DNA from: Sulfurovum sp. FS08-3
Lineage (GTDB): Bacteria > Campylobacterota > Campylobacteria > Campylobacterales > Sulfurovaceae
NCBI GenBank assembly: GCA_000830175.1
Contig: JQIS01000032.1
Location: 1 to 36,566, forward strand
DNA length: 36,566 nucleotides
Reading direction: 5' to 3'
Numbering within the stretch: position 1 is the first letter of the stretch; each line of letters opens with the position of its first letter. The notes beneath the pieces were generated by a model. The model did not search any database and had not been told where the DNA came from. It saw only the letters and a list, made by a program, of their open reading frames with translations. Both the position numbers and the translations under genes were made by a program. Below are positions 6,173 through 23,938 of this stretch, one piece after another.

Positions 6173-6724
6173 ATGAGATTAAAAGAGAACCAGACACGAT
6201 ACGTCGCTACAAAAATAGGTATAGATTTGGCAAATGCCCCATTTGTGCGTATGCCAAAGGGCAAAGAGGCGGTAGTGAGTGCCATTAAAGCCCTCATTGA
6301 TGAGAACCTCAAAAGCGAAAGAGCCTTGGATGATAAAGTCAAAAAGATATTGGATGAAAACGATGATGAGATAGAGTTTCAACACGCCAACGAACGCCAA
6401 CTCTTTTTTATGATCAAAAAGAAATTAGCACCCCAATACGGCGTGATTATGAATTATGACGATAGATACAACGACCTTTCGCACAAAATTTTGGATGAAC
6501 TCTACGAAGAGTATCTCCTTGAGTACGATGTCAATGAAAATCAAGTCAAAAATGTCATTTTCAAAGGCTTTAAAGATTTTGCTAATGCCTTCGAGAAGAT
6601 TGATGATACCGTCTATAAGAAGATCAAAGCAATGAAAAGAGAGGTTATACCAGGTACGCAAGAGTATGAACTTATCTACGAGCGACTCTACGAAGAAGAG
6701 CTTAAAAAACGAGGTATGTTGTAA
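6173..6724 (+). CDS. DUF507 family protein
   Basis: Protein of 183 residues, highly charged and mainly helical, made of two roughly similar halves (about 1-90 and 95-183). Each half has a pattern of a basic start followed by an E/D-rich helix, matching DUF507 proteins of Campylobacterota and some Deltaproteobacteria. No catalytic motif, signal peptide or membrane segment is seen. It follows purA by 9 bases and lies before carA, an arrangement I recall as common in this phylum. Function is unknown, and context suggests only co-expression with nucleotide synthesis. Confidence 0.8.
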   Translation: MRLKENQTRYVATKIGIDLANAPFVRMPKGKEAVVSAIKALIDENLKSERALDDKVKKILDENDDEIEFQHANERQLFFMIKKKLAPQYGVIMNYDDRYNDLSHKILDELYEEYLLEYDVNENQVKNVIFKGFKDFANAFEKIDDTVYKKIKAMKREVIPGTQEYELIYERLYEEELKKRGML

Positions 6725-9372: not shown

Positions 9373-9395
9373 GGGACTTTTGAGGCGAAGTAGCT
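9373..9395 (+). repeat. Direct repeat, copy 2, flanking the Rpn cassette
   Basis: Second copy of the 23-base asparaginase 3'-end sequence (2 differences). It overlaps the stop codon of the convergent agmatine deiminase at 9394-9396, so this copy probably marks the original junction between the two housekeeping genes. Confidence 0.7.
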
Positions 9396-10392
9396 AGAGG
9401 GCTACTTGCATCGTGGAGCAGTGGAGTGAGCCACCTTGTTCGATGAGTCTCATGCAGTCAATCCCAATAATCTCTTTGTCGGGGAAAAAGGCTTTGAATA
9501 TTTCGCCTACTTTTTTGTCGTTGGCATCTTGATAGGTGGGATAGAGAAGAGCGTGATTGGCGATAAAAAAGTTGGCGTAGGTAGCAGGTAGGCGTTTGCC
9601 CTCTTGGTTGTATTTGGGTGAGGTCATGGGCAAAGGGATAAGCGTATAGGGTTCGCCATTGGTTTGCGTGAAGCTTTGAAGCTGGGTTTTCATCGCCAAC
9701 AACGCTTCGTAATGTTCGTCATGGAGGTCGTTGCACTCAACATACATAATGGTATCTTTGGCTACAAATCGTGCCAATGTGTCGATATGACTATCGGTAT
9801 CGTCTCCCGCCAAAAAGCCATGATTAAGCCACAATACTCGTCTAGCTCCCAAATACTCTTTGAGTTTGGATTCTACTTGGGCTTTGCCTAATCCTCCGTT
9901 TCGGTTGGGGTTGCACAAACACTCCGTGGTAGTCAAAATCGTCCCCTCTCCGTCACTCTCGATAGAACCGCCCTCTAGCGTAAAATCAATCGACTCCAAA
10001 AGGGTATCACCAAAATAGCCTTTGATATGGAGATGTGCATTTACTTGATTGTCAAGATGGTAGGCAAATTTTCCTCCCCATGCATTAAAATCAAAATCAA
10101 GCAATTTTGTCGTACCACCCTCCTCTATGGAGATTGCACCGTAATCTCGTATCCATGTATCGTTGGTAGGCAATTCGACAAACTCTAGGTTGTGTGTGGA
10201 ACAAAACATATCGGATATTTTGGCTTGATTGTCGCAAACAATAATGACTTTTTGGTTGTAGGCAACGCCCAGTGCGATTTTAACAAAAGGACTCAATGCA
10301 CGTTCCAAATCATCCGCCCAATCACTCTGAGGATGAGGGAAACTTAAAAGCAATGCTCGTTGTTTCTCCCATTCGGCTAACATTCGTCTCAT
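9394..10392 (-). CDS. aguA: Agmatine deiminase / peptidyl-arginine deiminase-like hydrolase
   Basis: Cytosolic guanidino-group hydrolase of 332 residues converting agmatine to N-carbamoylputrescine, a step in putrescine synthesis. It opens with MLAEWEKQRALLLSFPHPQSDW as in the PAD_porph family. TWIRDYGAI and LEGGSIESDGEG hold substrate-binding Asp and Glu residues, NHGFLAGDDTDSHIDTLARF holds the catalytic His region, and the C terminus GGSLHCSTMQ carries the nucleophile C325. The next gene upstream ends 9 bases away on the same strand. The first start at 10392 (MRRMLAEWEKQ) could also be three codons later. No agmatine-forming arginine decarboxylase is in the window. Confidence 0.9.
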   Translation of the reverse strand: MRRMLAEWEKQRALLLSFPHPQSDWADDLERALSPFVKIALGVAYNQKVIIVCDNQAKISDMFCSTHNLEFVELPTNDTWIRDYGAISIEEGGTTKLLDFDFNAWGGKFAYHLDNQVNAHLHIKGYFGDTLLESIDFTLEGGSIESDGEGTILTTTECLCNPNRNGGLGKAQVESKLKEYLGARRVLWLNHGFLAGDDTDSHIDTLARFVAKDTIMYVECNDLHDEHYEALLAMKTQLQSFTQTNGEPYTLIPLPMTSPKYNQEGKRLPATYANFFIANHALLYPTYQDANDKKVGEIFKAFFPDKEIIGIDCMRLIEQGGSLHCSTMQVAL

Positions 10393-14443: not shown

Positions 14444-14482
14444 TGCAATTTGAGACTCTTCAAAAGTAGGATGCATTAAAAT

Positions 14483-14516
14483 TGCACTATTTTAAGCATT
14501 ATTATTTCACACCCTC
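14483..14516. repeat. 34-base direct repeat, copy 1, left of the toxin-antitoxin unit
   Basis: Identical over 34 bases to 15248-15281. The second copy contains the stop and last codons of aroA, so this copy is a displaced duplicate of the aroA 3' end. The two copies enclose 731 bases holding the toxin-antitoxin genes. Confidence 0.85.
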
Positions 14517-14552
14517 GAGAGAGATGGAGCGAGGAAACAAACCCCCAACTTA

Positions 14553-14561
14553 TGCTATAAT
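14553..14561 (+). promoter_or_regulatory. Extended -10 promoter of the toxin-antitoxin unit
   Basis: TGCTATAAT (TGn-TATAAT) lies 31 bases before the antitoxin ATG at 14593. SD AAGGAG is at 14581-14586. Confidence 0.65.
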
Positions 14562-14592
14562 ATCTCCAATAGTGCCAATAAAGGAGTGTATT

Positions 14593-14814
14593 ATGATAAC
14601 CCTTACCATTGATGATAGCATCATTGAAAATATCTATATTTATGAGTTTGAACATAATCCAGATAAGTTTTTTCACTTTATCAAAAGCAGTTTTGCCAAG
14701 TGGCGAGAGTCAAATACGAATCAAACACAAGAAGAGAATTTGCAACATTTGCAATCAACTTCCTTGGCTCATCTGTGGGATAATAACGAAGATAAGGTTT
14801 GGGATGAGTTATAA
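14593..14814 (+). CDS. Putative antitoxin of a MazF/PemK-type module
   Basis: Small protein of 73 residues starting MITLTIDDSIIENIYIYEF, a beta-strand then helix opening. It is followed by a helical, Gln/Asn-rich middle and an acidic tail (LAHLWDNNEDKVWDEL) of the kind that wraps a toxin. No known antitoxin DNA-binding fold is obvious. The identification rests on size, on the AAGGAG/ATG spacing, and on the 11-base overlap with a MazF-like gene. An upstream in-frame start at 14482 is rejected because it would run through the direct repeat and the promoter. It stays intact although the toxin is frameshifted. Confidence 0.65.
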   Translation: MITLTIDDSIIENIYIYEFEHNPDKFFHFIKSSFAKWRESNTNQTQEENLQHLQSTSLAHLWDNNEDKVWDEL

Positions 14815-15126
14815 ACGAGGGGATATTGTTTTGATTCGCTTTCCCTTTAGCAATCTTTCCAAATCCAAAAAACGCCCCGTCTTAATGATGCAAGAACCCA
14901 ATGAAAAGGGGACTTTACCGCTTTTCAAATCACATCCAATGGCAACCAAAAGCATCTATTGCCACTCAAAAAGCGTGATTTGCTAGAAACCAAACTTACT
15001 GTAGATTCTTATTTGCGATACGATAAATGTTTTACACTCAGTAGTGAAATTATTGATAAAAAAATTGCAAAAGTAAACGAAGATTTAATGCAAGAGCTAA
15101 AAAAAGTTTTTTGTAATCAAATTTAA
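14804..15126 (+). pseudogene. MazF/PemK-like endoribonuclease toxin, frameshifted
   Basis: Reads MSYKRGDIVLIRFPFSNLSKSKKRPVLMM, the standard N terminus of MazF/PemK/CcdB-fold mRNA interferases, including the GDIVLI..PF and K.RPVL motifs. The frame breaks in the A4G4 run at 14904-14911. In the frame starting at 14911 the family pattern resumes (DFTAFQITSN, LLETKLTVDSYLRYDKCFTLSSEIIDKKIAKV) to the stop at 15124-15126. One extra base in the run would restore a normal 107-residue toxin. It could be an inactivated toxin, a homopolymer sequencing error, or slippage control. It overlaps the antitoxin by 11 bases and converges on aroA. Confidence 0.8.
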
Positions 15127-15144
15127 ACGGCTTGACAAAAATAA

Positions 15145-15175
15145 ACTCTATCCACAATAGAGGTTTTGATAGAGT
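15145..15175 (+). terminator. Possible hairpin downstream of the toxin
   Basis: ACTCTATC (15145-15152) pairs perfectly with GATAGAGT (15168-15175) across a 15-base loop and is followed by GTTTTGG. A weak terminator at best. It starts 19 bases after the toxin stop. Confidence 0.35.
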
Positions 15176-15226
15176 GTTTTGGCTTCTGTCTGCATTCCAC
15201 CTCTCCCGAGTTTGTGAAATAACAGT

Positions 15227-15248
15227 AGGGTGTCAATTTATGCACCCT
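15227..15248. repeat. Short palindromic hairpin beside aroA
   Basis: AGGGTG and CACCCT arms around a 10-base centre. It is similar in arms and context to the hairpin at 6766-6787 (TAGGGTG..CAAT..ACCCTG) and abuts the second 34-base direct repeat. Confidence 0.5.
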
Positions 15249-15281
15249 GCACTATTTTAAGCATTATTATTTCACACCCTC
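15248..15281. repeat. 34-base direct repeat, copy 2, at the aroA 3' end
   Basis: Identical to 14483-14516. It includes the aroA stop (15272-15274) and the last coding bases. With the first copy it brackets the toxin-antitoxin unit, as expected of att-like ends or a target duplication. Confidence 0.85.
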
Positions 15282-18153: not shown

Positions 18154-18187
18154 GTAACCCATGGAACCAGTAAATGCTCCTTTTTTC

Positions 18188-19486
18188 TTATTTTATCCTA
18201 TTTTTTATTTGGAGATTGGAGGTTGGGTTAGAATTGCTGGGTAACAGTGGCAATATAGCTTTGCCAACCAAAAGGCTCTTGTCTGCTATATCCACAGTAG
18301 ATGTTGCACTTGCAAATATGTCATTACTTTTGATTTCTATATTTTTTATTGTTTCTGCAAAGATTGTTTCAGAATAATTTTTTATTTTTGAAGCAATAAG
18401 AGGTCTTATTAAATCATTTATTTTTGTATTTAAGTGTTCATTCGAGACTTCAATAGCTTCCATTAGACTATGAATATTTAGTCTTAGTCTATTTTCTACA
18501 TCTCTTAACAAATCTACTAATAGTGTTTGAGAAAATTTATTCTCTACTTTTCTTTTTTCACTCTCAAACTCTTTATTTATATCTCTCATACTACTCAATA
18601 AATCAGATATTTTTTTATCTATTTCACTCACATCTAGGCTTATTGTATCTCTTCTTGTTTTTAAATCAAAAATAATAGAATTTACCGCATCTTTTGCTTT
18701 ATAATCAAACAACTTTTGTATAAACTCATCCACATCTATATTCTCAATTATAGATTTAAAATCATCTATTTGATTATCTATCGCAGATACCGTACCTACA
18801 AAAGGGCTTTGTATAATAGATGAAGCCTGTTGTTCTATATGCTTTTTTATCTCTGCTACTTCATTTGGTAATTTTTTGTCTATTTTATTTAGGATAGTAA
18901 CAAAATCCAATCTATAATCTTTTATCTCTTTTAAAAACTCTAAAGTACTATTTTTTATCGTCCCATCTTCGATATTGAGTACCAACACAAAACTAACATC
19001 TTTTGTCATATAGTTTAGTATGGATTGATTGTGTCTTTGGAGATTTGAGTCAAGCCCTGGCATATCTACAAATATGATATTGTGTTTTTGTAATTGCGGT
19101 GAATTGATATATACTTTAAGATAGTCTGCTAAGTCTCTATCGACATCTGCAAAGTTTAGACTATTGACAACTTGTATAGGTGTTTGATTATCAAACTTAT
19201 ACACCTCTATTTTTTCTTGTGGGCTAAAATATAACTCTGTCGCTACTGCTGTCTCTGGTATGATATTTGTAGGCAATAACTCATCGCTATTGAGATATGC
19301 GTTGATAAGCGTACTTTTGCCTGCATTAAAGCCACCGATTAGCGGTAGATACAAGCGAAAATTGTTTATATCCTCTTCGATTACCAAAAGCTGTTGAGTA
19401 AAACTTTGGGCTACTTCTATTTCACTACCATCAATGTACGATTTTACATTTTTGATTTGAGATAATATTCTCTCTTTGTTGCGCAT
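18188..19486 (-). CDS. Dynamin-like GTPase, second of a tandem pair, short C terminus
   Basis: Bacterial dynamin-like protein of 432 residues. GTPase motifs: G1 GGFNAGKST (51-59), G2 threonine in PETAVATEL, G3 DMPGLDS (141-147), G4 LNKIDKK (199-205). The rest is a long helical neck (about 240-400) with a heptad-rich DISLDVSEIDKKISDLL..EFESEKRKVE pattern. It ends abruptly after LLPSNSNPTSNLQIKNRIK with no clear trunk or membrane-binding tip. Partners in Campylobacter jejuni-type pairs are some 600 residues or more, so this copy appears truncated. Its ATG shares one base with the upstream partner's stop (TAATG), so the two are translationally coupled. Base composition is richer in A/T than in the flanking housekeeping genes. 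Confidence 0.85.
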   Translation of the reverse strand: MRNKERILSQIKNVKSYIDGSEIEVAQSFTQQLLVIEEDINNFRLYLPLIGGFNAGKSTLINAYLNSDELLPTNIIPETAVATELYFSPQEKIEVYKFDNQTPIQVVNSLNFADVDRDLADYLKVYINSPQLQKHNIIFVDMPGLDSNLQRHNQSILNYMTKDVSFVLVLNIEDGTIKNSTLEFLKEIKDYRLDFVTILNKIDKKLPNEVAEIKKHIEQQASSIIQSPFVGTVSAIDNQIDDFKSIIENIDVDEFIQKLFDYKAKDAVNSIIFDLKTRRDTISLDVSEIDKKISDLLSSMRDINKEFESEKRKVENKFSQTLLVDLLRDVENRLRLNIHSLMEAIEVSNEHLNTKINDLIRPLIASKIKNYSETIFAETIKNIEIKSNDIFASATSTVDIADKSLLVGKAILPLLPSNSNPTSNLQIKNRIK

Positions 19487-21777
19487 TATTTTACCTCTTC
19501 AAATTGATTTTTGAAATTCTTAACATCTGCAATAGTTTTTTGGTATCTTTTTTTAGCATCGTCTATAATTTCCAAATCTTTAAGTATCGTAGATATCTCT
19601 TTTTGAGAATGCTCTTTGATAGAGTGTATAAATCCATCGCCTTTTTCTTCTAATACTTTTTTAATATCCGCTAATGTTTTTTCAAGCTCTGCTTCTATAT
19701 CTTCACATATTTGATAGATTATCTCACGAACTTTATTTTTTAGTTTATCAATATTATCATCTTGTATTTCGCTACTTGAAAAATAATTTGCAATAGCATC
19801 TCTATACGCTTTGTCTTTCATCTGCAAAGGTTTTACTTTGATAGCCCTAAGTGCATTTTTTACAGGATTAATAATGAAATCTTTATCAAAATTTTCATCT
19901 TCTAAATCAAACCCTTTAAGTGCTGATTTAATCAATGCACTTTCAGCTACTTGTATATCTACGATTTTACCCCATATTTCTGCTACTTCTTCATTGATAA
20001 GTCTTACAAACATGGAGGCATTTTCTGCCGCATCAACTACATTGGCTACATTGTAATTGATTGTTCTGTAGTGAGTTTCATATACCTTTTTACTACTTCC
20101 CCAAGAGAAAGGATTCCACCAACTAGATGTACTTCTTGAACCTGTACAAACTTCATAGCTTTCTTCTTTACTTTTAGATTCAACTTTGATACCAAGATAA
20201 TCCGAACTTCTATCGTTTATTAAACGGATTAGTTTATAAATATTTTCTTCTATATCAAAACTCAAATCTGTAAAAACTTGTTTGACATCGCTACCAGCTC
20301 TATTTAATCCATTTTCAATATATGCAGCTCTTTGTTGTAGCTCTTTTACATTTGCTCTATCTAGCTCTGCCATTTTTGCATTTAATACTTTTAATAAGCT
20401 CTCTAATTGAATATTAAATTCATTGCTTTGACCAGCTATTAAATCTGATAATTTATTGGCTAATATTTCATCTTTTTGTGATTTTATCTTCTCTAAATCA
20501 ATATTTTTTATTCTATCTATATTTGCCAATTCAAATAAAACTTTGTCATCCAGTGTTATGTTATATCTTTTTTCAAGATTTTCAAGTGCGTGTTTTTCCA
20601 TCTCATCAAGATTTTCACGACCTTTTTTAGCTATGTTATAACAAATCCCAGATATAAATTTTACCTCTTTATTTTTGACTTTTTCCATGATAGGTTTATT
20701 TGGATTTGAGTTGATAACAGCTTGTAGTGCATTGTTGGCTTGTTGTGAAAGCTTTTGATAAATATCTTTGATAGCTTTTTTTATATCACCACCATACTTT
20801 TTAAACTCATCCACAAGTACCGAATCAAACTTGCTACCCAACAAAATAATATTTGTAATCCCATCAGCAGGTAAAGTATTGACCAAAAACTCTGTATCCT
20901 CTTGCCCCATAAACTGCGATGATGTGGACAATAAAAAGACAGTATCGCATCTTGATAAAAAGTCTCTTGTCGCCATACCTCTTGAAATAATCGGGTCATT
21001 CACTCCTGGAGTATCTACAAGTTCTATATCCTTAAGTGTTGGTATATTCAAAGATAGAGTTGTATTTCTAGTAATAGGAGTATATTTACCATTTGCACCT
21101 ACATACTCATTGAGTTTACCTATTAAATCAGGGATTGATGCTATATTTTCTATCTTTTGCGTTGTGCCTATTAAATTTCCATAATCAATATGTTCTTTTT
21201 TTGCCATTCGCAAAAGTTCATAAGCACCAAATACAGCATCACCTACCAATCTTTTTGCTTCGTCAAATATCTCTTGTTTTGCAAGCAACTCCTCTAATTT
21301 TGTGTTTTGTTGTAAGATATTATCTTGTTTATTAAGAGCATTAATTAACTTTTTATTGTGTTCATCTATTTGAGATTGTTTTTGTTTTGCAACTTCAAAT
21401 ATCATCCGCTCAAACTCTTGTGCATTTCTCTCTACAATACCCCAGTCTGCTTTTGAATAAAATTCAACTTGGGCAGATAAAGTTTCTGCATATTTGATTA
21501 CCGTTAGTGCCGCCGTCATAGGAGTCGAAGCTTTTGGTAATATATCTTTACCATCAAACAACAAAGCATTAATAAAAGATGATTTACCCGCTTTTACCTG
21601 TCCTACAACACCTATTCTCAAAACCCCATTTTTACTCACTGCATTATCTATTTTTTCAGATAATTTTTCGGAAAGATTTATCAAATCGTTCTTTTGGGGA
21701 ATATTTTCGAGTTCTTTTGTATCTATCAAAAATGTGTGTAGTTCACCTACTAAAGTTTTTATTGCATAGTCATTCAT
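19486..21777 (-). CDS. Dynamin-like GTPase, first of a tandem pair, with Trp-rich tip
   Basis: Large bacterial dynamin-like protein of 763 residues. G1 is GQVKAGKSS (59-67), G2 in TPMTAALTV, G3 DTPGVNDP (255-262), G4-like LGSKFDS near 313-319 (SKFD for the usual NKxD). A coiled insertion of about 100 residues (about 115-215) splits G2 from G3. Near residues 548-563 a short loop SWWNPFSWGSS, rich in Trp, sits between helices and is a good candidate membrane-inserting paddle. ATG 21777 is chosen because AAAGGAG lies 7 bases upstream; a GTG at 21828 overlaps pyrC and lacks an SD. It follows pyrC by 43 bases and is coupled to the shorter GTPase. Paired dynamins tether or remodel membranes; some act in anti-phage defence. 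Confidence 0.85.
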   Translation of the reverse strand: MNDYAIKTLVGELHTFLIDTKELENIPQKNDLINLSEKLSEKIDNAVSKNGVLRIGVVGQVKAGKSSFINALLFDGKDILPKASTPMTAALTVIKYAETLSAQVEFYSKADWGIVERNAQEFERMIFEVAKQKQSQIDEHNKKLINALNKQDNILQQNTKLEELLAKQEIFDEAKRLVGDAVFGAYELLRMAKKEHIDYGNLIGTTQKIENIASIPDLIGKLNEYVGANGKYTPITRNTTLSLNIPTLKDIELVDTPGVNDPIISRGMATRDFLSRCDTVFLLSTSSQFMGQEDTEFLVNTLPADGITNIILLGSKFDSVLVDEFKKYGGDIKKAIKDIYQKLSQQANNALQAVINSNPNKPIMEKVKNKEVKFISGICYNIAKKGRENLDEMEKHALENLEKRYNITLDDKVLFELANIDRIKNIDLEKIKSQKDEILANKLSDLIAGQSNEFNIQLESLLKVLNAKMAELDRANVKELQQRAAYIENGLNRAGSDVKQVFTDLSFDIEENIYKLIRLINDRSSDYLGIKVESKSKEESYEVCTGSRSTSSWWNPFSWGSSKKVYETHYRTINYNVANVVDAAENASMFVRLINEEVAEIWGKIVDIQVAESALIKSALKGFDLEDENFDKDFIINPVKNALRAIKVKPLQMKDKAYRDAIANYFSSSEIQDDNIDKLKNKVREIIYQICEDIEAELEKTLADIKKVLEEKGDGFIHSIKEHSQKEISTILKDLEIIDDAKKRYQKTIADVKNFKNQFEEVK

Positions 21778-21820
21778 AACATTTCTCCTTTGTTGTGCAT
21801 AAAAGTTCTGAGCAAAATAC

Positions 21821-22834
21821 TCACTCAACCAAGCCGATACTCCATCCTATCTCCTCTCCTGCGTACATGGGGACGACGTTACCGTATATTGGGGGTACTT
21901 GAAAGGGTTTTTGTTCTAGTGTGACTCTTTTTTCTTTGGGGTGGATACCGTAGATATTTTTAGCATTATCACTGATAAATTTTTGCAAATTTTCCCTATC
22001 CGCCCCCTCTTTATCAAAAAGCTCTACGAGAAGTTGCAACGCAATAGGGGCGGTAAAGACTCCCGCTGCACATCCGCACGACTCTTTGGCACTTTGGGGA
22101 TGAGGCGCAGAATCGCTTCCAAACATCACTTTGGGATGACCACTAAGAGCAACTCTTCTCAATGCTTCTCTATCAATGGGTCTTTTGGCGATGGGTTTGC
22201 AAAAAAGATGAGGTTGCAACATTCCCCCTGCTACATCATCGAGGGTAATGAGCAGATGGTGAATGGTAATCGTAGCGTAGAGGTTGGGGTATTTATCCAA
22301 AGCCTCCACCGATTCTTTGGTGGTAATATGCTCCATAATGATTTTGAGATTGGGAAAAGCGGAGGCTAATTGCTCATAGATGCTCACAAACTCCGCCTCT
22401 CGCTCCATTACAAAGCCATTGGTCTCACCGTGAACGCAAAGCGGAATGCCTAGCTCACTCATAGCACTAAGCGTTGGTCGAAGCTCCTCTATGTCGAAGT
22501 TGCTTACCCCTCCATCGGAGTTGGTGGTAATCCCTGCTGGGTAGAGTTTGAGTGCGATAATATCCTCTCGTACCTCTTCCAAAAACTCTTTGGTGTAGGT
22601 GGGTTGAAAAAAGAGCGTCAAATGTGCCTCAAAATCCTCTTCGCCTTGTGCTATTTTAATCCTTTGGGCGTAGCTTTTGAGTTGCTCTTTGGTAGTAATA
22701 GGCGGGACAAGATTGGGCATAACCAAAGCTGCTGCAAAGCTTTTGGCGGTAAGTGGAGCTACGGTTTGAAGCATATCGTTGTCTCGCAAATGCAAATGCA
22801 TATCAAGGGGGGTGTTAAGCGTGATGGTTTTCAA
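21821..22834 (-). CDS. pyrC: Dihydroorotase
   Basis: Cytosolic zinc hydrolase of 337 residues that cyclises carbamoyl aspartate to dihydroorotate in pyrimidine synthesis. DMHLHLRD gives the metal-binding HxH, LKLYPAGITTNSDGG the carbamylated Lys, CVHGETNG and MEHITTKESVE further metal His residues, and FGSDSAPHPQSAKE the catalytic Asp. It is the short class II (E. coli-like) type. The start is TTG with AAAGGA 8 bases upstream. A TATAAT at 22864-22869 (minus) is a plausible promoter, which would also serve the dynamin-like pair downstream. Confidence 0.96.
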   Translation of the reverse strand: MKTITLNTPLDMHLHLRDNDMLQTVAPLTAKSFAAALVMPNLVPPITTKEQLKSYAQRIKIAQGEEDFEAHLTLFFQPTYTKEFLEEVREDIIALKLYPAGITTNSDGGVSNFDIEELRPTLSAMSELGIPLCVHGETNGFVMEREAEFVSIYEQLASAFPNLKIIMEHITTKESVEALDKYPNLYATITIHHLLITLDDVAGGMLQPHLFCKPIAKRPIDREALRRVALSGHPKVMFGSDSAPHPQSAKESCGCAAGVFTAPIALQLLVELFDKEGADRENLQKFISDNAKNIYGIHPKEKRVTLEQKPFQVPPIYGNVVPMYAGEEIGWSIGLVE

Positions 22835-22888: not shown

Positions 22889-23938
22889 TTAATAGGTAGG
22901 AGAAGAAGTGTTGCTGTATTGTTCATGCGTATAGAGATTGGTAGCTAAAAACTTTTTCATTCCCAACGCTCGTTTGATTGAAGTGGCTATATGAAACGCC
23001 AAATTGGGCGGTACGGCATTGCCTACCATCTTGTACCCAGCGGAGAGATTTTTGTAATAAAACCTATGCGTATCGGGAAAGCTTTGTACTCTTGCACACT
23101 CCCTTATGCTTAGCCGTCGATAGAGATGTTGGCTTCCCTCTACAAACTTTTGTCTATCTTTTTCGATTTTCTCCATTTTGGGAGCTTGTGGATGGAGTGG
23201 GGCGTGTCTGCCTCCTGCTTGAATGGTAAAGGATGGCTCATCCCAACTTCTCACACGGTTACGAGACATAAACATCGATGAAAAGCCCCCGACCATATAC
23301 TCATGATTGGCAATTTTGCAGTTATTGGTGCTGTAGTTTTTGCTATCGGCCGATACTGCGTTTTTTTGTAAATCCCAAATAATATCTTTGAGCGTGGGTT
23401 TTGTTTCAAGTGGCTTAGGGAAGCTAAAATGCTCTATATTTAAATCCTCTCGAAATCCCACAAAAAAGATGCGTTTGCGGTCTTGTGCTACGCCGTAATC
23501 GTGGGCATTGAGCCTATCAAAATAGAGCCTATAGCCACTATTGCGAAAATGATTTTTGATATTCTCCAAAGCATCTTTATGACGAGAAGCCAACATCCCT
23601 GAAACATTTTCGGCTAAGAAAAAAAGCGGTTTTTTGGCTCTAAGTACTCGTATAAACTCAAAAAACAACTGCCCCCGATGGTCATCAATCCCCTTAAGCT
23701 TCCCCGCCTCACTCCAACTCTGACATGGCGGCCCACCAATAAGCCCTATCGCATCGGGAATCTCACTTGATGGAATATTGACAATACTTCTTTTATCAAG
23801 CGTGGTATTAGGAAAGTTTTTTTCAAATGTTTCCCATATCTCCTTATCGTATTCATTTGCCCAAATGGTTTGAAATCCTGCTTGATGGAAGCCTAGGTCT
23901 AGGCCACCTGCACCTGAAAAAAGAGATATTAATTTCAT
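22889..23938 (-). CDS. DNA (cytosine-5) methyltransferase, second of the R-M locus
   Basis: m5C methyltransferase of 349 residues. Motif [11 protein letters not shown] (7-16), motif [14 protein letters not shown] with nucleophile C72, motif VI ENVSG (110-114), motif [14 protein letters not shown], and motif X ending [14 protein letters not shown] are all intact. The variable region between VIII and IX (about 165-255) should set the target. It lies directly downstream of the restriction gene, its start sharing the last bases of that stop, so it belongs to the same operon. Together with the other m5C enzyme it would protect the host from the Eco47II-like nuclease, but two m5C enzymes are more than a palindromic site needs. 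Confidence 0.92.

What the first reader, a model, noticed from the sequence alone, without database searches (positions are those of the whole stretch)
19486..21777. Tandem dynamin-like GTPase pair cotranscribed with pyrC, candidate anti-phage or membrane-remodelling system
Seen: two GTPases with intact G1 and G3 motifs, coupled by TAATG, starting 43 bases after pyrC; the larger has a Trp-rich loop suited to insertion into membrane. Known: paired bacterial dynamins form a membrane-tethering hetero-oligomer in Campylobacter, and the Eleos defence system consists of two dynamin-like proteins (LeoA/LeoBC). Inference: with two restriction-type systems within 10 kb on the same strand, this pair is likely defensive. 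The SKFD G4 motif and the short partner make it unlike the pairs I know.
Basis: partly seen in the sequence, partly recalled or inferred. Interest (0 to 1): 0.65.

Follow-up and report, generated by a model that had tools for sequence, protein, structure and literature searches.

The report
IS-broken three-dynamin cassette beside pyrC
The two neighbouring membrane-remodelling GTPase genes are real, but the second was cut short by a jumping DNA element, and with a fragment on another contig they look like the wreck of a mobile cassette of three different dynamin-like GTPases that recurs, largely undescribed, on bacterial chromosomes and plasmids.

Summary
In detail: two dynamin-family GTPases (A, 763 aa; B, 432 aa) lie on the minus strand, joined by TAATG, 43 bases after pyrC. 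The reading needs three corrections. (1) B is short because an insertion-sequence end starts at its codon 416; its last 16 residues come from the element, and the hydrophobic paddle and returning trunk helix of its homologues are gone. (2) SKFD is ordinary: homologues of A have degenerate G4 motifs. (3) The pair is neither Eleos nor the Campylobacter Cj-DLP1/2 pair. Homologues of A sit with a B and a third dynamin-like GTPase, C, at 21 of 22 loci examined (the other is at a contig end), in Campylobacterota and on plasmids. C keeps its GTPase domain but carries differing extra domains. Here the 3' half of a C gene, ending in an Lcl_C (C-type-lectin-like) domain, lies on another contig directly behind the element's other end. 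A 57-base pyrC-tail repeat occurs only before A and at the end of that C. Best reading: an A-B-C cassette integrated at the pyrC 3' end, later gutted by an insertion sequence; this copy is probably dead. Intact cassettes are plausible membrane-acting conflict systems; that is untested.

The parts
19486..21777 (-). Gene A: dynamin-like GTPase, 763 aa, apparently intact
   Evidence: Dynamin_N 9.2e-22; 52% identical to L065 homologue; homologues over most of its length on plasmids
21577..21603 (-). G1 (P-loop) of A, GQVKAGKSS
   Evidence: sequence; invariant core in seven homologues
21004..21015 (-). G3 of A, DTPG
   Evidence: sequence; invariant in seven homologues
20824..20835 (-). G4 position of A, SKFD; homologues have SKFD, SKMD, SQID, SQVD, TQRD, GQLD
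20086..20133 (-). Trp-rich loop of A, candidate membrane-inserting tip
   Evidence: aromatic or hydrophobic loop at the same place in all seven aligned A proteins; function inferred
18188..19486 (-). Gene B: dynamin-like GTPase truncated by an insertion sequence; native up to about 18240, last 16 codons element-encoded
   Evidence: Dynamin_N 3.5e-16; repeat from 18239; homologue L065 is 557 aa
18177..18239 (-). Insertion-sequence end 1 (63 bases), about 18 copies in the genome
18113..18176 (-). Insertion-sequence end 2 (64 bases), about 24 copies in the genome; joined end to end with end 1, interior missing
21805..21861 (-). 57-base direct repeat: pyrC 3' end plus start of the pyrC-A spacer; its only other copy is on contig C4 917-972 at the end of the C fragment
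21821..22834 (-). pyrC, the host gene at whose 3' end the cassette sits
   Evidence: relatives' PyrC 72% identical, C-terminus shared

Best explanation
The pair is the left part of an accessory cassette of three dynamin-like GTPases (A, B, C) that entered the chromosome at the 3' end of pyrC, between 57-base direct repeats of the pyrC tail. A high-copy insertion sequence then removed the 3' end of B and the 5' half of C. Shown: A intact; B cut by an element end; a 3' fragment of C on contig C4 directly behind the matching other end, in compatible orientation; the two repeats; adjacency of A, B and C in relatives. Inferred: that C4 continues the window behind the element, so that the window's join to the GGDEF gene at 18176/18177 is an assembly mis-join. 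Proposed working of intact cassettes (inferred): A and B co-assemble and remodel or tether membrane in a GTP-dependent way through hydrophobic tips (Trp-rich loop of A, paddle of B); C, whose GTPase domain is conserved but whose attached domains differ (Lcl_C, TPR, Sel1/DUF285, ACP-like), senses a trigger such as an invader or envelope damage and starts the assembly. The copy here, without B's paddle and C's GTPase domain, is probably inactive.
For: B homologues run to about 560 aa with a hydrophobic segment lost here. Element ends abut B and the C fragment. The 57-base repeat occurs exactly twice in the genome, same orientation. C fragment 40% identical over 128 residues to C of L065, plus Lcl_C 3.2e-24. 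A, B and C adjacent at 21 of 22 loci. Low G+C of A+B. Swapped attachments on C.
Against: The element end occurs about 24 times, so the C4 link is not proven. Nearest relative L065 has the order C-A-B, which would put C before A, not after B. The Campylobacterota order B-A-C also differs from A-B-C. No integrase was found in the cassette. No function has been measured; PADLOC has no strong model for A, B or C.
Confidence: 0.66

Rival explanations
1. The window join is real: the element's ends were left behind by a deletion that removed B's 3' end and everything up to the GGDEF gene, and the C fragment on contig C4 is the relic of a different dynamin cassette.
For: The contig as deposited joins them; element-mediated adjacent deletions are common (general knowledge); relative G043 holds two C genes.
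Against: Three end-to-end joins in this assembly have different junction letters, one more is head to head (L004), and many contigs stop at the same base of the ends, as expected of a collapsed repeat. The 57-base repeat pairs exactly this C fragment with the pyrC-A spacer.
Confidence: 0.22
2. A working two-gene anti-phage system of the Eleos kind (LeoA plus LeoBC).
For: Weak LeoA match of B (32 bits, 1.7e-8) over the P-loop region; restriction systems nearby; plasmid homologues of A match LeoBC weakly (1e-8 to 7e-14).
Against: A has no LeoBC match, while true LeoBC proteins of the phylum score 400-480 bits; some genomes hold both a true LeoBC and an A homologue far apart; B is truncated.
Confidence: 0.05
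3. A housekeeping membrane-tethering pair like Campylobacter Cj-DLP1/2, co-expressed with pyrC.
For: Best solved-structure matches are the C. jejuni pair (5owv) and BDLP.
Against: Patchy distribution, no N-terminal assembly domain (5owv 123-225 aligns with A 15-117), strong third-gene association, truncated B.
Confidence: 0.07

Closest known systems
Tandem dynamin operons on plasmids (E. coli NZ_CP148279.1, P. aeruginosa NZ_CP133095.1, Calditerrivibrio NC_014749.1), annotated only as 'dynamin family protein'
   Same: Homologous A, B and C genes side by side; A 27-31% identical over most of its length
   Different: Order B-A-C; B and C complete; no pyrC repeat; E. coli copy has a fourth CFI-box gene
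Eleos (LeoA + LeoBC)
   Same: Tandem heterotypic bacterial dynamins; B resembles LeoA weakly
   Different: No LeoBC match for A, third GTPase C, separate loci in genomes that have both
Campylobacter jejuni Cj-DLP1/Cj-DLP2 (Cj0411/Cj0412)
   Same: Heterotypic tandem dynamins; nearest solved structures
   Different: A lacks the 119-residue assembly domain; low identity; third GTPase; patchy distribution

Membership tests
Bacterial dynamin-like proteins | Dynamin_N GTPase domain with G1 and G3 | tested here: met
   Both proteins above Pfam cut-off; motifs present
Bacterial dynamin-like proteins | Helical neck and trunk with membrane-binding tip | tested here: inconclusive
   Models weak (pLDDT 51 and 59); Foldseek of the B homologue ranks BDLP, Cj-DLPs, IniA and LeoA among the top; window B lacks the tip region
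Eleos | LeoA and LeoBC homologues as a pair | tested here: not met
   A no match, B 32 bits to LeoA on 62 residues; true LeoBC 400-480 bits in the phylum
Eleos | Protection against phage | not testable with these tools
   needs an assay
Cj-DLP1/2 tethering pair | N-terminal assembly domain on the larger partner | tested here: not met
   5owv chain A 123-225 aligns with A 15-117; assembly domain is 119 residues (PMC6104087)
Three-dynamin cassette (this report) | A next to B and C | tested here: inconclusive
   A and truncated B in the window; C fragment on contig C4 behind the element end; physical link inferred
Integrated element flanked by direct repeats of a gene's 3' end | Two copies of the gene tail in direct orientation flanking the insert | tested here: inconclusive
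   Exactly two copies, right orientation, but on two contigs; no integrase seen
Diversity-generating retroelement target (Lcl_C domain of C) | Variable repeat with adenine-directed differences from a template repeat, and a reverse transcriptase | tested here: inconclusive
   One 74% identical partner on C53 with differences not restricted to adenines; reverse transcriptase not searched

The most novel reading that the evidence does not exclude
A recurrent, so far unnamed immune system of three dissimilar dynamin-like GTPases, in which the third is a modular receptor whose sensor domain (C-type-lectin-like, TPR, Sel1/DUF285, carrier-protein-like) is exchanged between strains while A and B form the membrane-acting effector; it moves as a cassette and is often broken.
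Probability: 0.35. Interest if true: 0.75.

Novelty: new variant of a known kind. Interest (0 to 1): 0.5.

Why it matters
Bacterial dynamins are mostly described as pairs. A conserved trio with a domain-swapping third member gives a testable case of dynamins acting as an effector under a receptor, comparable in principle to animal dynamin-like immune GTPases. It also shows that the short partner in this strain is decay, not design.

Tried and rejected
Structure prediction of A (pLDDT 51) and of the full-length B homologue (pLDDT 59) was too poor for detailed use; the alignments held two sequences each. B's missing 3' end was sought in the genome with one homologue and with a 15-sequence profile: nothing found, but conservation there is low. 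A homologues in phage records and viral contigs: none. Papers on a three-dynamin defence operon: none found; preprints and many subscription papers are not held. Diversity-generating retroelement reading of the Lcl_C domain: not supported by the one partner repeat. The other dynamin-family proteins of the genome (C57, C58, C59, C62, C16) show only weak, local similarity to A, B and C.

Full report
OBSERVATION. The two genes are present and more than chance. A (21777-19486, minus, 763 aa) and B (19486-18188, minus, 432 aa) overlap as TAATG, and 43 bases separate the pyrC stop from A. Both have the Dynamin_N domain.

WHY B IS SHORT. A search of the own genome with the locus returned, besides the locus itself, eighteen near-identical 48-69-base matches to the last bases of B. 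A wider query split these into two blocks of about 63 bases, found about 18 and 24 times, which abut in the window at 18176/18177. Elsewhere each block mostly occurs alone, and many contigs begin or end at the same base of a block. In a genome of the same genus one block is followed inward by an ORF with weak similarity to the DDE_Tnp_1-associated domain of transposases (22 bits, below Pfam's cut-off of 32). I read the blocks as the two ends of a high-copy insertion sequence whose interior was lost in assembly: three end-to-end joins have different junction letters and one further join is head to head. The block enters B at codon 416, so residues 417-432 are element-encoded. The closest B homologue (L065, 42% identical) is 557 aa and continues with two hydrophobic stretches and about 100 residues of helix; other homologues share this layout. 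By analogy with Cj-DLP2, whose trunk tip holds the lipid-binding residues (PMC6104087), the truncated B should not work normally (inference).

RELATIVES. B homologues are absent from the four other genomes of the genus, and one close B was found among 60 genomes of the family. A is found at E<1e-20 in 25 of 397 genomes of the phylum, from 11 of 68 genera, the own genome included. The closest pair lies in a Campylobacteraceae MAG (JAMOSL010000144.1, L065), beside a third gene with a Dynamin_N domain and TPR repeats. A has homologues on plasmids of E. coli, E. albertii, P. aeruginosa, Moraxella, Photobacterium and Calditerrivibrio. At 22 loci examined A lies with both B and C in 21; in the last the contig ends. 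The usual order is B-A-C; L065 has C-A-B; the Photobacterium plasmid has B-C-A; some Helicobacter-like loci carry split frames. C has a conserved GTPase domain but differing attachments: TPR in L065, Sel1 and DUF285 in L144, an ACP-like domain in L145, an N-terminal extension in P. aeruginosa. G4 of A is degenerate in all homologues, so SKFD is normal for this family, and the Trp-rich loop corresponds to an aromatic or hydrophobic loop in all seven aligned A proteins.

THE MISSING THIRD GENE. A profile of C found, apart from A and B themselves and two weak GTPases, one match in the own genome: contig C4 from base 61, directly behind the element's other end at C4 1-62. The 290-residue fragment matches C of L065 from residue 343 (40% identity over 128 residues) and ends in an Lcl_C domain (3.2e-24). 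At its stop codon lies a 57-base segment 93% identical to the pyrC 3' end plus the spacer before A; a genome search found only these two copies. Relatives' PyrC proteins share the C-terminal residues, so the pyrC copy looks native. This fits the minus-strand layout pyrC, repeat, A, truncated B, insertion sequence, C fragment, repeat: a cassette inserted at the pyrC 3' end. The G+C content of A+B (31%) against pyrC (46%) agrees with import. The physical link is inferred, because the element end occurs many times, and the order A-B-C differs from the orders in relatives.

MEMBERSHIP. Eleos: not met. The ETEC paper describes LeoB and LeoC as one split dynamin, so Leo is a two-dynamin system (PMC4159319). 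Cj-DLP1/2: closest solved structures, but the assembly domain is absent. Dynamin fold: supported by sequence profiles and by Foldseek on a weak model.

FUNCTION. For intact cassettes I favour a conflict or stress system in which C senses and A+B act on the membrane. For: swapped attachments on C; carriage on plasmids; WYL regulators at 4 loci; Zorya genes beside the P. aeruginosa copy; MoxR-vWA genes inside one cassette (L140) and Ter-type genes (TerB-like, TerD, vWA, PP2C) beside others, including downstream of the repeat on C4. Against: most chromosomal flanks are core genes, and no control set was run. In this strain the system is most likely dead.

Noticed in passing
L156 (G000 contig C4) 1237-6378: Directly downstream of the second repeat copy: a TerB-like gene, three vWA-type (TerY-like) genes, a PP2C phosphatase and an EcsC-like gene, a Ter-type stress module.
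   Followed up: partly
L136, L137, L138, L145, L146 (G093, G170, G095, G151, G412): In these Helicobacter-like genomes the cassette sits at one fixed place beside glyQ-like and gpsA-like genes and an AcrB-type pump gene, with split frames in several genomes, as if switching on and off or decaying.
   Followed up: no
L157 (G043 contig C108): The relative G043 has a second C-A copy, flanked by TerD-domain genes.
   Followed up: no
L160 (G000 contig C53, about 22916-23041): A fragment of another Lcl_C (C-type-lectin-like) domain next to an insertion-sequence end, 74% identical to the one on the C fragment.
   Followed up: partly
about 14472-15275 in the window; L156 near 6416-6592 and 9392-9447: A dispersed repeat (TTATTTCACA..CTCGGGAGAGGTGGAATG) shared by the window and contig C4, unrelated to the insertion sequence.
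   Followed up: no
L141 13254-14414, L147 4716-5825, L148 5364-6449, L140 2-781: A recurrent gene (up to 386 aa; ILILYNPYY-type N-terminus) beside several cassettes; the one copy scanned (L141) had no Pfam match.
   Followed up: no
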